A stretch of DNA of 64,000 bases from Pedobacter sp. MC2016-15 (lineage in GTDB: Bacteria > Bacteroidota > Bacteroidia > Sphingobacteriales > Sphingobacteriaceae): assembly GCF_026239695.1 (NCBI RefSeq), contig NZ_JAPIVS010000001.1:310001-374000 (forward strand), in the 5' to 3' direction. The notes under the pieces were generated by a model, which saw only the letters and a list, made by a program, of their open reading frames with translations, searched no databases and had not been told where the DNA came from. Of this stretch, positions 34,704 through 39,576 are shown one piece after another. Positions within the stretch are counted from its first letter, which is position 1; each line of letters begins with the position of its first letter. Made by a program: the position numbers and the translations under genes.

Positions 34704-34850
34704 ATGAAAATCGTATTGAGGATCCTGTTAGCTGTTCTTGTATTCCTGTTTTTGCAATGGGTCATGCTGGAGCTTTATAAGATTGGAACCGGACCAGAGC
34801 CTCACCGATCAGTAAATCCTTATTCGGTTTATAATGGTAAGATGATTTAA
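34704..34850 (+). CDS. Small single-pass membrane protein, 48 aa
   Basis: ATG at 34704, stop at 34848. An N-terminal membrane helix (IVLRILLAVLVFLFLQWVML) is followed by a polar tail (ELYKIGTGPEPHRSVNPYSVYN). Family unknown. A decayed copy of the same gene lies at 39483-39565, which supports that this is a real, once-duplicated gene. A strong hairpin starts at its stop codon. Confidence 0.6.
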   Translation: MKIVLRILLAVLVFLFLQWVMLELYKIGTGPEPHRSVNPYSVYNGKMI

Positions 34851-34888: not shown

Positions 34889-35569
34889 TCAACCTTCGCT
34901 TGCAATGATCTTTACATCTTTGATGTAGTCACTGTAAGAGACCTCATACCCTTTAAAAGCTTTCAGGAAATTCCAACAGTGCAGAACTTCATCACTCCTG
35001 ATGGGTCCGATATCAATAGTAGCCTGTTCTTCTTTTTGCAGACCAACATAACCTGAGTAAAGGACAGCATTTTGAGTTTCGCTGTAAATCAACAGATAAA
35101 CCAGATCAGTCTCACTGTCTTTAGTCATTGGTCTATCGCCCATGATCCAAGTCAGCGATGCATTACCCAAAGTTGAAATCCTAATCTGCGGCACCATCAA
35201 TGGATTCCTCACACCCTCGCTTAGAAGAAGATCTTTAAAGCTTGTCACAAATTGAGAGCCATCAGTGACTGTGCAATTCATAATATTAGTCATCAGGCAA
35301 TTCATTGGAGTTTGGGGTTTCTTTTTTGTAATTAGATGGTATCCGATTTTAGCGGCTTCATTCATTTTGCCTGCTAATGCATTAGCATATGCGAATTTTG
35401 ACCGTGTCTTTTCCTGAAGTGCTGTTGCTGGCTTAACAGGTTTAGTGCTTTTTTTTCTTGGAGGTTCAATGCCAAAGAATTCATAGACATCGCTCATTCT
35501 TTTCGCCCAGTTTTTGCGGCGTGCGTTTGGAAAGGGGTTGTGTCTTCCGGGTCCTAGTTTTTTTCTCAT
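34889..35569 (-). CDS. DUF6266-like protein, divergent member
   Basis: 226 aa without a signal peptide. It starts with a basic segment (MRKKLGPGRHNPFPNARRKNW). From about residue 50 it follows the same plan as the two DUF6266 proteins at 37045 and 38404: TALQEKTRSKFAYANALAGKMNEAAKIGYH, then a strand with GNASLTWIMGD in the position of their LEISWTME/LVFTWDTS, LVYLLIYSETQNAVLYSG, and LHCWNFLKAFKGYEVSYS. Role unknown. It ends the minus-strand island, 6 bp after the spanin-like gene, so it is probably in one transcript with the lysis-like genes. Confidence 0.7.
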   Translation of the reverse strand: MRKKLGPGRHNPFPNARRKNWAKRMSDVYEFFGIEPPRKKSTKPVKPATALQEKTRSKFAYANALAGKMNEAAKIGYHLITKKKPQTPMNCLMTNIMNCTVTDGSQFVTSFKDLLLSEGVRNPLMVPQIRISTLGNASLTWIMGDRPMTKDSETDLVYLLIYSETQNAVLYSGYVGLQKEEQATIDIGPIRSDEVLHCWNFLKAFKGYEVSYSDYIKDVKIIASEG

Positions 35570-35574
35570 AATAT

Positions 35575-36090
35575 TTAAGTTTTAAGGGTGAATTTTTCTT
35601 TTAGTTTTCTTATAGCCAACCTAGCGATGACTGCTAGTAATACTAATCCGATTATTAACCATAACCAGGACGGCGTACTCTTTTTGTTATCAGTTTTACT
35701 CCCAGATTCAAGCTTCTGCTTCAGTTTAATCTTTGATTTGAAAGCAGCTGCCTCCGATTCAAAGTTTTTTGCAATGTTGGTATTCGAAGAACCAGACTTA
35801 CTTGATCCATGAATCCTGACCTTCTCTGCTTCTCCTGAAAAGCCTTTCTCGCTTGAGAAGGTAAAGGGACCTTTGGGCCATAGTTCAACGAAGTAATCAC
35901 TTCTATTGCTATCTAAACGCAGCCCAATCACAGCCGAACTGCGCAAATAATCAATGTTCCCTGAGACCTGCTGCTCTAATTGATTAGTCATTTGCTCTTC
36001 ATAACGTTCAGAGTTTGACCCGGTATTCTTGAACAAACCGCAACCAACAATCAGAATAGCAAGCGGGCTGATATATTTCAAAGATTTCAT
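35575..36090 (-). CDS. Unimolecular-spanin-like lipoprotein with C-terminal membrane helix
   Basis: 171 aa. The N-terminus is a lipoprotein signal (SPLAILIVGCGLFKN, Cys about 17). The middle (residues about 30-135) is hydrophilic and partly helical, with many Lys/Ser. Residues about 142-160 form a membrane helix (WLWLIIGLVLLAVIARLAI) and the tail is basic (RKLKEKFTLKT). A lipid anchor at one end and an inner-membrane helix at the other is the topology of u-spanins, which fuse inner and outer membranes in phage lysis. It lies directly after the endolysin-like gene with an ATGA overlap. Function is inferred from topology and context only. Confidence 0.6.
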   Translation of the reverse strand: MKSLKYISPLAILIVGCGLFKNTGSNSERYEEQMTNQLEQQVSGNIDYLRSSAVIGLRLDSNRSDYFVELWPKGPFTFSSEKGFSGEAEKVRIHGSSKSGSSNTNIAKNFESEAAAFKSKIKLKQKLESGSKTDNKKSTPSWLWLIIGLVLLAVIARLAIRKLKEKFTLKT

Positions 36091-36743
36091 GGAACACTCC
36101 TTTCTTTGTTGATCCAGTCAGCTACCTGATGAATTGTTCTTCGATGCCTGATCCGGCGATATACACCATCCCCATTTCTACCTCCGCCAGGATTTGTATT
36201 CGCCTCGATAGAACTACACCAATCTCCCCGAAGGTTTTCTATGATCCCAACATGAGCAATCCTTTTTAATTCAGGAAAGTAGATCCCCAAAACATTGCCA
36301 GCTAAATATTGACCTGTGATTCTTGATTTAGGGAATAAATCAGGACACCATGCTGTGCGCGGTTTCGCAAATCCTTCCTTAGCATAGATAAAACTCACAA
36401 AGGCGGCGCAGTATGGAAATCCCTTTTTTAATCCAGCGGTTTTCAGATATGCCTCTACACGTTCACCATCATTGGCATTTGTCTTCTCCCGCACTCCTAT
36501 TTCGGCCTGCGCAAGTTTCACTAATCTGTCTCTGCAATACTGATTGGTAATTTCCCCCGAAGGTTGTGAGTGTTCCTTTAGCAAATAGCGATGAAACACA
36601 TTGCACCAGATAATAAGAGTATACCAAATGATGCCAAGTAAAATACGAACTGTTGCCATAGCGATAAAACGTAAAATTGTGAAACCATAGACGATAAAAG
36701 TGGAAGCCCAATAGTCATTAGAAATTGATTCAATAACCACCAT
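36087..36743 (-). CDS. Membrane-anchored CHAP-like peptidoglycan hydrolase (endolysin-like)
   Basis: 218 aa. Residues about 12-55 are hydrophobic (FIVYGFTILRFIAMA; ILLGIIWYTLIIWCNVF), giving one or two N-terminal helices like a signal-anchor-release endolysin. The C-terminal domain (about 72-205) has VKLAQAEIGVREK, PYCAAFVSFIYAKEG with the nucleophile Cys, and RIAHVGIIENLRGDWCSSIEANT with the His and acidic/Asn partner, a CHAP/NlpC-type amidase or endopeptidase. ATGs at 36743 and 36659 are both possible starts. It overlaps the holin-like gene in another frame and the spanin-like gene by 4 bp. Confidence 0.7.
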   Translation of the reverse strand: MVVIESISNDYWASTFIVYGFTILRFIAMATVRILLGIIWYTLIIWCNVFHRYLLKEHSQPSGEITNQYCRDRLVKLAQAEIGVREKTNANDGERVEAYLKTAGLKKGFPYCAAFVSFIYAKEGFAKPRTAWCPDLFPKSRITGQYLAGNVLGIYFPELKRIAHVGIIENLRGDWCSSIEANTNPGGGRNGDGVYRRIRHRRTIHQVADWINKERSVP

Positions 36744-36961
36744 GAGAGGGCGACAATGAGTAAGAATCCTATGAGACTTATCAATATTAATAACCAGATC
36801 GTTTGGTCCATCACACCAATAGTTGGATCAATGCGATGCAAGAAGGCTGAACTCACTATCCAAATGCCCACTAATAGATTGAGCAATAAAAAAGGCTGCC
36901 AGTTATAAACATTAAAATATGATGACCGCACAGCGATCGGGATTGATCTTAAGACTTTCAT
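36578..36961 (-). CDS. Small membrane protein, holin-like
   Basis: 127 aa with three or four hydrophobic helices: FLLLNLLVGIWIVSSAFL, WLLILISLIGFLLIVALSWWLL, LPLLSSMVSQFYVLSLW and FVFYLASFGILLLSGAMCFIAI. Short basic N-terminus, no soluble domain. Its 3' 82-166 bp overlap the start of the endolysin-like gene in a different frame. Small multi-helix proteins placed just before an endolysin are commonly holins. Sequence alone cannot prove this, and a simple unknown membrane protein is the alternative. Confidence 0.55.
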   Translation of the reverse strand: MKVLRSIPIAVRSSYFNVYNWQPFLLLNLLVGIWIVSSAFLHRIDPTIGVMDQTIWLLILISLIGFLLIVALSWWLLNQFLMTIGLPLLSSMVSQFYVLSLWQQFVFYLASFGILLLSGAMCFIAIC

Positions 36962-37044
36962 AATAAATGTTTTAAAATGTTATACAATCAGATAATTGAT
37001 TTAAATACCTGGCAGGCTTATGGGGCCTGCCAGGTTTGGTTCAT

Positions 37045-37707
37045 TTAAGCGATAGGCTTAAATGTACCCAGATGATCACTTGTCGAAACATAAGTTTTAT
37101 CTTCGGACAAGAAGAACATCCAGCCATACATGGTATCACCAATATATGGTCTTGGTAATTGGATGGTGTACTTTAACATTGCCCTTGTCGCTGCGCCACG
37201 GGCAATCACAAATTTCTCCTTTACAGGACTGTAAAAAACAAATGTTGCGAGATCTGTTGGCTTTGAAATTGGATTTAAAGGTGGATTTTCCATTGTCCAG
37301 CTTATTTCCAATTCCCCCTGAGCCAAGGGCACTAATGAGGTCTGGTATCCACCATCAATCTCATTTTTAACTTTAAGACCAGTAATTGGCAATTTGGAAT
37401 AATCCAATGCATAGTTTGGATAAACACCGATTATTGCATTTTTCAAGCCATTGCGTACAGCAAGGTTAATCGCTGTTGGTCCGGTGTTGTCCGATTCATG
37501 ACCTATGGAAATAAATTCAGAGACATTTCCATAGAACATGGTCACCAGACCAAATTTTGAACGCTGATTGAGTTGTTTCAGCGTTGGCTCTTTTGTTGAA
37601 GCTTTTGGGGTGCTTTTACCCACGGTAAGACCTCGCCATTGAGATATTACCACCTGGCCGATCTTTCCATTGAAATCTCCGACCTGTCCTCTTTTGATAA
37701 TTGACAT
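37045..37707 (-). CDS. DUF6266-family protein
   Basis: 220 aa. The start SIIKRGQVGDFNGKIGQVVISQWRGLTVGK and the segment PTLKQLNQRSKFGLVTMFYGNVSEFISIG are the family signature. Later blocks are NAIIGVYPNYALDYSKLPITG, LEISWTMENPP, FVFYSPVKEKFVIARG and MYGWMFFLSEDKTYVSTS. The predicted fold is mostly beta, with no signal peptide, lipobox or membrane helix. Function is unknown. It lies directly upstream of the holin/endolysin/spanin-like genes (84 bp gap) and could be the cargo they release (inference). Confidence 0.85.
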   Translation of the reverse strand: MSIIKRGQVGDFNGKIGQVVISQWRGLTVGKSTPKASTKEPTLKQLNQRSKFGLVTMFYGNVSEFISIGHESDNTGPTAINLAVRNGLKNAIIGVYPNYALDYSKLPITGLKVKNEIDGGYQTSLVPLAQGELEISWTMENPPLNPISKPTDLATFVFYSPVKEKFVIARGAATRAMLKYTIQLPRPYIGDTMYGWMFFLSEDKTYVSTSDHLGTFKPIA

Positions 37708-37966
37708 TTTGATAAATGTTAAGTGAAAAAATTAATTATTTCAAGCCTGTACTACCGGTAGTTTTCTGACTTGTTGAAACGAATGTAGGAAGGGGTTTTA
37801 TAAGTCACAAGTGATCAGCCTGTTATGTCGTATCTTGTCGCTTCTTGTCGCACATTTGTCTCATTTTACGACATTACAGTGCAACCAGAGTACAGTTTTT
37901 GTACTGATTTGTACATAAAACTGTCCCTGGTTTTTAGTAATGAATTTAGAAATTCTTCAGAAAGAG

Positions 37967-38281
37967 TTACTGGTCACAACCTTTACAGCCATGTTTTTGA
38001 GATTTATTTTCTCTGATCCATTGTTCTAGTTCCCGGCGAACATAAACGGGATGGCCCCCAACGTAGTAAGCAGGATAAATCTGGTTTTTGTTCCAGCGTT
38101 GAAAGCTCCTTACGCTAAACCTAAATAATAGCGCAGCCTCCTTGAGTGTGATGTAATCTGAAGTCTTTAGAGTAATTTGGTCTACAGGCTTTGTACGGTC
38201 AGCAATTTCTTTTAATGTTGTCGAAGCCCCCGTTAATAAATCAATCAACTTATCCAATTTTGAAAATAAATGTTTGAACAT
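37967..38281 (-). CDS. MerR/excisionase-like helix-turn-helix protein
   Basis: 104 aa from the ATG at 38281 (MFKHLFSKLDKLIDLL); an in-frame ATG at 38311 is also possible. A short N-terminal helix precedes a winged HTH: ITLKEAALLFRFSVRSFQRWNKNQIYPAYYVGGHPVYVRRELEQWIREN. This is the AlpA/excisionase-like helix_turn_helix_17 type common next to Bacteroidota mobile elements. It is a likely DNA-binding regulator or excisionase for the island. The C-terminus ends HGCKGCDQ, with two close cysteines. Confidence 0.82.
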   Translation of the reverse strand: MFKHLFSKLDKLIDLLTGASTTLKEIADRTKPVDQITLKTSDYITLKEAALLFRFSVRSFQRWNKNQIYPAYYVGGHPVYVRRELEQWIRENKSQKHGCKGCDQ

Positions 38282-38403
38282 AATTAGAAATTTGTTTAAT
38301 AAATGAAACAATTATGATTACATTCTATCGCCCTATTGAATTTATAAATTCTGTAAATAATAACAAAATTTATTTTGAAGGAAATTGTTTTATTTCAAAA
38401 ATC

Positions 38404-39033
38404 TCAGAAGTTACCAAGATATATACTGTTTGATATAGCTTTTTTGTCAGCAGAAACAAAAGCTGAATATACATAAATGGTGTATGGATCTTTATATTTG
38501 GGGAGTTTGATGATCTCTGTTCCCTCATTCCTCCTTACGTTATCAATGGAGTAAACAGCAAAGTTTTTTTCCGGGCAGTACGCAACTACCATGATCCTGT
38601 CGGTGGGTTTTGTGCCAATTATTTTTTCTGATGTATCCCAGGTGAATACTAAGCCATCCTTTGTTCTTTCAACATTTACAAATTCGTACACTGGCATTTC
38701 TCCTTTACTTAAGATGACATTAGTGTAATCTATTTCCTGATTTGGATAAACTCCTTTGATAGCGTTTAGTTTATTGAGGGATGTAGCTTTATTGTATGGG
38801 TTTAATGTGGTGTTTTTAGTTTCCAATTCAAATCCTGCGTTGATGAAAGGTTTTAACGGTTTGAGTAGATTTGCGACCAGGGTTGTTCCAGCTCTAACAG
38901 CAAGCTGGGCCTTGCTGGGATTATTTTTTTGTTTACCAATCCGCCGTTTAATTAGCTGACCATTTAATTCGTAAATCACGGTGTCACCTAGCCTTCCACG
39001 AAAGCTATCAGCGACCTTTTTTGCTGTTGCCAT
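38404..39033 (-). CDS. DUF6266-family protein
   Basis: 209 aa. Family blocks: VADSFRGRLGDTVIYELNGQLIKRRIGKQKNNPSKAQLAVRAGTTLVANLLKPLKPFINAGF, NAIKGVYPNQEIDYTNVILSKGEMPV, LVFTWDTSEK, MVVAYCPEKNFAVYS and IYVYSAFVSADKKAISNSIYLGNF. No signal peptide. It is separated from the HTH gene by 122 bp and is the first gene of the island as transcribed. Function unknown; paralogous to the proteins at 37045 and 34889. Confidence 0.85.
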   Translation of the reverse strand: MATAKKVADSFRGRLGDTVIYELNGQLIKRRIGKQKNNPSKAQLAVRAGTTLVANLLKPLKPFINAGFELETKNTTLNPYNKATSLNKLNAIKGVYPNQEIDYTNVILSKGEMPVYEFVNVERTKDGLVFTWDTSEKIIGTKPTDRIMVVAYCPEKNFAVYSIDNVRRNEGTEIIKLPKYKDPYTIYVYSAFVSADKKAISNSIYLGNF

Positions 39034-39482: not shown

Positions 39483-39565
39483 GTTTGCAATGAGTTATGC
39501 TGGAACTTTATAAGATTAGAGCCAGACCGGAGTTTCACCGGTCGGTTAATCCTTAATCGGTTAAT
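39483..39565 (+). pseudogene. Decayed copy of the 48-aa membrane-protein gene (34704-34850)
   Basis: About 85 bp match the 3' part of the intact gene at roughly 80 percent by eye. Read in the same frame, it gives VMLELYKI-x4-PE-x-HRSVNP but with stop codons before VMLEL and after NP, and no start. The two copies flank the DUF6266/lysis-like genes as imperfect direct repeats. Confidence 0.75.
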
Positions 39566-39576
39566 ACAGAATAAAT

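What the first reader, a model, noticed from the sequence alone, without database searches (positions are those of the whole stretch)
34889..39033. Holin/endolysin/spanin-like trio next to signal-less DUF6266 proteins
Seen: a small multi-helix membrane protein, a membrane-anchored CHAP-like hydrolase and a lipoprotein with a C-terminal membrane helix (u-spanin topology) are consecutive and overlapping. Around them are three DUF6266-type proteins without export signals and an excisionase-like HTH. No capsid, tail or replication genes are present. Known: holin-endolysin-spanin sets can serve as a type 10 secretion route. Inference: DUF6266 proteins could be cargo released by this set.
Basis: partly seen in the sequence, partly recalled or inferred. 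Interest (0 to 1): 0.75.

Follow-up and report, generated by a model that had tools for sequence, protein, structure and literature searches.

The report
Phage-derived lysis operon with FnIII proteins
Pedobacter and related bacteria carry several copies of a small operon that joins a captured virus cell-bursting kit (pore, wall cutter, membrane fuser) to signal-less proteins of unknown function, which suggests that some cells burst on purpose to release those proteins.

Summary
A three-helix holin-like protein (HOL), a CHAP hydrolase and a lipoprotein with a C-terminal membrane helix (LPP) are consecutive, and three DUF6266 proteins surround them. The trio is homologous to the lysis module of tailed phages. 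HOL and CHAP overlap out of frame by exactly 82 nt in 107 of 115 copies. In the host it lies outside prophages, in 1-5 copies per Pedobacter genome and up to 22 CHAP genes in another genus. A DUF6266 gene sits just upstream of HOL in 78 of 90 distinct loci. All genes are under purifying selection. DUFb heads the operon behind a shared control region (10-bp repeat array, -7 box, CCGG palindrome). DUF6266 is an N-terminal domain plus a fibronectin-III domain, without an export signal; in two other genomes an apparently unrelated signal-less FnIII protein takes its place. Phages with the same lysis genes lack DUF6266. Best reading: a domesticated lysis operon (type 10 secretion-like or colicin-operon-like) releasing FnIII proteins. 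Release itself is not shown; internal control of lysis, a suicide function or a selfish mobile cassette remain possible.

The parts
38404..39033 (-). DUFa: DUF6266 protein, 209 aa, no signal
   Evidence: PF19781 E 1.7e-28; DUFa clade in tree
37967..38311 (-). Excisionase-like HTH_17 regulator (TTG start; ATG at 38281 also possible)
   Evidence: PHROG_66 E 4e-8; HTH_17 E 6e-5, below its cut-off
37821..37856 (-). 10-bp-period direct-repeat array (GCGACAAGAA, GCGACAAGAT, ACGACATAAC) upstream of DUFb
   Evidence: array score 18 or more in 33/78 DUFb and 23/36 DUFa upstreams vs 17/461 controls
37780..37787 (-). Bacteroidota-type -7 box TACATTCG
37753..37760 (-). TACCGGTA palindrome, about 26 nt after the -7 box
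   Evidence: 23/78 cassettes vs 0/475 control upstream regions
37045..37707 (-). DUFb: DUF6266 protein, 220 aa; N-terminal hairpin/helical domain + C-terminal FnIII domain; first gene of the lysis operon
   Evidence: PF19781 E 1.1e-28; AlphaFold2 pLDDT 91; FnIII Z 11.2, rmsd 2.0 over 93 residues
36578..36961 (-). HOL: holin-like protein with 3 predicted membrane helices
   Evidence: alignment A3; hydropathy; phage-contig homologs E down to 6e-16
36087..36659 (-). CHAP hydrolase, 190 aa from the conserved ATG (ORF extends to 36743), N-terminal hydrophobic segment, overlaps HOL by 82 nt
   Evidence: overlap; C84, H136, E152, N154 invariant; PHROG endolysin
35575..36090 (-). LPP: lipoprotein with C-terminal membrane helix (u-spanin topology)
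   Evidence: phage-contig homologs, mostly weak, in the same place
34889..35569 (-). DUFc: divergent DUF6266 protein, 226 aa
   Evidence: PF19781 E 1.7e-7
34751..34833 (+). Left copy of an 83-nt direct repeat bracketing the cassette (3' part of an intact 48-aa ORF, 34704-34850)
39484..39566 (+). Right copy of the 83-nt direct repeat (83% identical), decayed reading frame

Best explanation
A tailed-phage lysis module (holin, CHAP endolysin with its own N-terminal export segment, u-spanin) has been taken over by Sphingobacteriaceae and placed in one regulated operon behind a signal-less DUF6266/FnIII protein. Proposed mechanism: when the operon is switched on, probably in a subset of cells, DUFb accumulates in the cytoplasm. 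HOL opens or depolarises the inner membrane, CHAP cuts the wall, and LPP fuses inner and outer membranes. DUF6266 proteins, including those from unlinked DUFa-DUFb loci, are then released, as in lytic type 10 secretion or in colicin operons. Shown by sequence: phage origin, non-prophage setting, co-operonic order, selection, conserved control region, predicted DUF6266 fold. Inferred: lytic activity, release, and the function of DUF6266. Confidence is about 0.9 for 'domesticated phage lysis operon coupled to DUF6266' and about 0.45 for the full 'releases DUF6266 as cargo'.
For: Phage contigs carry HOL-CHAP (often the same 82-nt overlap) and, in about a third of them, a detectable LPP, amid terminase, head, tail sheath and tape measure genes. 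The flanks of 90 host loci have no phage structural genes. DUF6266 lies within 600 nt upstream of HOL in 78/90 distinct loci. Distances of DUFb, HOL, CHAP and LPP correlate, r 0.47-0.67 vs permutation maximum 0.13. dN/dS is 0.07-0.39 for DUFb, HOL, CHAP and LPP. Array, -7 box and palindrome stand before DUFb; arrays are absent before HOL (0/88) and DUFc (0/22). Isolated DUFa-DUFb pairs also have repeat arrays (6/8). In the genome with 22 CHAP matches, and in 3 of 4 loci fetched from a second genome, a 210-aa signal-less protein not detectably related to DUF6266 by sequence, with a helical N-domain and FnIII C-domain, sits between CHAP and LPP. DUF6266 is absent from 29 phage records with the same lysis genes and from the phage database.
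Against: No experiment. DUF6266 occurs in many loci without lysis genes, so it may act inside cells. DUF6266 has no recognisable effector activity. Its position relative to the trio varies between genera, which also fits a regulatory partner. Multiple copies of a lethal cassette per genome are costly unless tightly controlled. Some correlation between gene distances follows from common descent of the unit alone.
Confidence: 0.45

Rival explanations
1. DUF6266/FnIII proteins act inside the cell as sensors or inhibitors of the lysis genes (antiholin-like, toxin-antitoxin or abortive-infection style); the operon is a programmed-death device, for example against phage, with no cargo.
For: No export signal and no membrane segment in DUF6266; tight operonic link; the small single-membrane-helix gene upstream of holin seen in several phage contigs was not found in the host loci, where DUF6266 stands in that place; the HTH resembles the mad1 HTH of a defence system.
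Against: PADLOC has no model for the other parts; the cassette sits in a polysaccharide-utilisation-like region; DUF6266 pairs exist without lysis genes.
Confidence: 0.2
2. A selfish mobile cassette (phage-derived satellite or domesticated remnant) that spreads between sites; the host gains nothing.
For: Near-identical cassettes with unrelated flanks, e.g. 95.6% over 3504 nt; empty site in a relative; 83-nt direct repeats unique to the two ends; excisionase-like HTH.
Against: No recombinase or packaging gene in the unit; direct repeats are not general (10 of 88 loci, some of them common repeats); long-term purifying selection on every gene, although selfish elements are selected too.
Confidence: 0.2
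3. A non-lytic envelope-remodelling or wall-editing module in which the holin-like protein only helps export or activates CHAP, and DUF6266 is structural.
For: CHAP has its own N-terminal hydrophobic segment; some type 10 systems are reported as non-lytic (PMC13284979).
Against: A spanin-like LPP has no obvious use without outer-membrane disruption; order and overlap are those of phage lysis modules.
Confidence: 0.1

Closest known systems
Type 10 secretion systems (Serratia chiWXYZ; Yersinia entomophaga YenLC)
   Same: Holin, peptidoglycan hydrolase and spanin cluster outside phages, phage-derived, under transcriptional control, serving proteins made in the cytoplasm (PMC10847048, PMC13284979).
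   Different: CHAP-type hydrolase with its own export segment, single u-spanin-like protein instead of an i/o-spanin pair, 82-nt holin/endolysin overlap, candidate cargo inside the operon, many copies per genome, in Bacteroidota. Secretion not tested.
Lysis module of Bacteroidota-type tailed phages (IMG/VR contigs, e.g. L171, L178)
   Same: Homologous HOL and CHAP with a similar overlap and order; homologous or analogous LPP.
   Different: Host copies lack the small upstream single-helix gene seen in several phages and have DUF6266 and a shared promoter instead; no virion genes around.
Colicin operons with a lysis protein (from general knowledge)
   Same: Signal-less protein first, release genes behind it, one promoter.
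   Different: Full holin/endolysin/spanin set rather than a small lysis lipoprotein; no toxin domain recognised.
DUF6266 (PF19781)
   Same: All three proteins are members.
   Different: Nothing is published on the family in the library searched; here it is predicted to end in an FnIII domain and is seen to travel with lysis genes.

Membership tests
Type 10 secretion system | Holin, endolysin and spanin genes clustered | tested here: met
   (topology and homology; function not tested)
Type 10 secretion system | Cluster lies outside a phage genome | tested here: met
Type 10 secretion system | Derived from a phage lysis cassette | tested here: met
Type 10 secretion system | Needed for release of a specific protein | not testable with these tools
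   Needs expression and secretion assays
DUF6266 (PF19781) | Score above the curated cut-off | tested here: met
   100, 100.5 and 31.4 bits vs cut-off 23.4
u-spanin | N-terminal lipobox and C-terminal membrane helix in one protein | tested here: met
   Lipobox Cys invariant in A4; C-terminal segment in 69/71; a strict lipobox pattern was found in only 38/71, start codons uncertain
u-spanin | Membrane fusion activity | not testable with these tools
   Needs an experiment
CHAP/NlpC-P60-like endolysin | Catalytic Cys and His conserved | tested here: met
   C84 and H136 invariant in 27 sequences; no Pfam CHAP hit, PHROG endolysin hit
Known anti-phage defence system | PADLOC model for the system's core proteins | tested here: not met
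   Only the HTH resembles mad1

The most novel reading that the evidence does not exclude
A new class of type 10-like secretion in Bacteroidota: families of paralogous, separately regulated suicide-release operons (1 to about 20 per genome), each with its own FnIII cargo and its own promoter repeat word, so that different cell subsets lyse to release different FnIII proteins.
Probability: 0.3. Interest if true: 0.82.

Novelty: new variant of a known kind. Interest (0 to 1): 0.62.

Why it matters
No paper in the searched open-access library names DUF6266 or a lysis cassette together with Pedobacter, and none of the papers found through T10SS plus Bacteroidetes appeared, by title and abstract, to describe a type 10 system in this phylum. 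If the operon releases FnIII proteins it would give Bacteroidota a lysis-based secretion route, a role for an abundant unknown family, and a case of domestication and multiplication of phage lysis genes. The shared control region makes regulation directly testable.

Tried and rejected
Prophage or tailocin remnant: rejected, no structural genes in the flanks of 90 loci and all genes under purifying selection. Membrane-anchor extension of CHAP (36743 start): rejected, in-frame stops in relatives. DUF6266 as a phage protein: no hit in the phage database, in PHROGs or in 29 phage records; viral-contig scan with DUFb found none. The HOL alignment could not be used for a viral scan, too divergent. 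Sequence homology of the 210-aa FnIII protein with DUF6266: not detected by profile comparison, so remote homology is neither shown nor excluded. The N-terminal domain of DUF6266 was not searched alone. Direct repeats as a general feature of the cassettes: only 10/88 loci, several of them common repeats, and the control used mismatched loci. Solved structures for CHAP by sequence: none.

Full report
Observation. The three DUF proteins are PF19781 members. CHAP is nearest to phage endolysins. Relatives of CHAP carry an in-frame TAA inside the first part of the called ORF, and across loci the conserved start lies 82 nt before the end of HOL. In 107 of 115 HOL-CHAP pairs an ATG in the CHAP frame stands at exactly that place. 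The real CHAP is therefore most likely 190 aa, with an N-terminal hydrophobic segment encoded in the other frame of HOL's last membrane helix.

Distribution. The own genome (5.1 Mb) has 22 DUF6266 matches and three complete cassettes. In 99 relatives CHAP is found in 39, nearly all of the same genus. A scan of named genomes found 263 relatives; the 80 kept are almost all Pedobacter, several per species in some. In the GTDB family DUF6266 occurs in 89 of 201 genomes and 13 of 25 genera, and CHAP-like matches in 93 of 201 (some of these are weak and may be other CHAP proteins). Gene order DUF6266-HOL-CHAP-LPP is kept in most loci: of 90 distinct loci 78 have DUF6266 within 600 nt upstream of HOL and 71 have LPP. 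These loci were found through CHAP and are related, so the counts are not independent.

Phage origin. 42 viral contigs hold CHAP relatives; HOL is detected in 34 matches and LPP in 14, some only weakly. Contigs looked at closely carry terminase, head, tail sheath or tape measure genes. None of 29 such records contains DUF6266. Several phages have a small one-helix gene before HOL; a profile built from five of these finds no relative in the host loci. The flanks of 90 host loci contain no phage structural gene.

Selection and co-inheritance. Nei-Gojobori dN/dS in close pairs is 0.07-0.29 for DUFb, 0.08-0.39 for HOL (overlap left out), 0.09-0.22 for CHAP and 0.16-0.37 for LPP. Distance matrices of DUFb, HOL, CHAP and LPP correlate at r 0.47-0.67, permutation maximum 0.13. 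In the DUF6266 tree most cassette DUFa proteins and all eight isolated 'a' genes fall together (98/98), apart from DUFb, though each group needs several changes.

Control region. Upstream of DUFb lies an array of direct repeats with 10-bp period starting near -155 (IQR -164 to -148), then a TAnnTT[T/C]G box, then a CCGG palindrome mostly 24-29 nt after the box. TACCGGTA occurs in 23 of 78 cassettes and 0 of 475 control upstream regions. Array scores of 18 or more: DUFb 33/78, DUFa 23/36, isolated pairs 6/8, HOL 0/88, DUFc 0/22, control 17/461. The repeat word differs between loci. So DUFb appears to head the lysis operon, and DUF6266 genes elsewhere have the same kind of array. Which protein binds is unknown; the neighbouring excisionase-like HTH is a candidate by inference.

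DUF6266 fold and replacement. AlphaFold2 gives pLDDT 91. Residues 114-220 form an FnIII domain: Z 11.2, rmsd 2.0 over 93 residues to fibronectin. In genome G146 (22 CHAP matches, 2 DUF6266 matches) the 210-aa protein between CHAP and LPP has a helical N-domain and an FnIII C-domain (pLDDT 88.8, Z 13.6) and no detectable sequence relation to DUF6266. It recurs in three of the four loci fetched from genome G220. That two such families accompany the same lysis genes points to a shared role for signal-less FnIII proteins.

Mobility. Some cassettes are 87-96% identical over 2.3-3.6 kb with unrelated flanks. In the window the cassette lies between a TonB receptor and a fucosidase and is bracketed by an 83-nt direct repeat, found nowhere else in the genome. 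The repeat is the 3' part of a 48-aa ORF that relatives hold elsewhere. Genome G018 has the receptor (94% identical), an IS-type integrase ORF, one copy of the small ORF and the fucosidase, without the cassette. This indicates insertion here; the agent is unknown.

Interpretation. Shown: a domesticated phage lysis module, selected, and in one unit with DUF6266. Inferred: controlled lysis and release of DUF6266. In the literature, holin/endolysin/spanin clusters outside phages are called type 10 secretion systems, and Yersinia entomophaga uses one for lytic release from a subset of cells (PMC10847048), while Salmonella systems are reported as non-lytic (PMC13284979). The present operon meets the anatomical features; the functional one is untested.

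Noticed in passing
window 34704-34850 and 39484-39566: A 48-aa conserved one-helix small ORF, intact at the left end of the cassette and duplicated as a decayed 3' fragment at the right end; looks like an insertion into the 3' end of a small gene.
   Followed up: partly
L243-L258 (one genome outside Pedobacter): 22 CHAP matches in one genome; 16 loci were read, nearly all HOL-CHAP-FnIII protein-LPP, while L252 has DUF6266-HOL-CHAP-LPP.
   Followed up: partly
L105:2275-3723 and about 20 other loci: A 470-500 aa protein, by eye GntR/MocR-like (winged helix plus aminotransferase-like part), beside many cassettes, with no Pfam hit.
   Followed up: no
L142:2929-4092, L081:3473-4300 and others: Variable genes inserted between DUFa and DUFb, including a 275-399 aa family without Pfam hit; possible further cargo or regulators.
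   Followed up: no
L089:3686-4513, L073:7983-8795, L127:1283-2092: A 270-aa family whose N-terminus resembles DUF6266 by eye but which has no Pfam hit (two of the three tested).
   Followed up: no
upstream of isolated DUFa-DUFb pairs, L054-L061: 11-bp-period repeat arrays with a different word at each locus, within about 320 nt before the first DUF6266 gene.
   Followed up: partly
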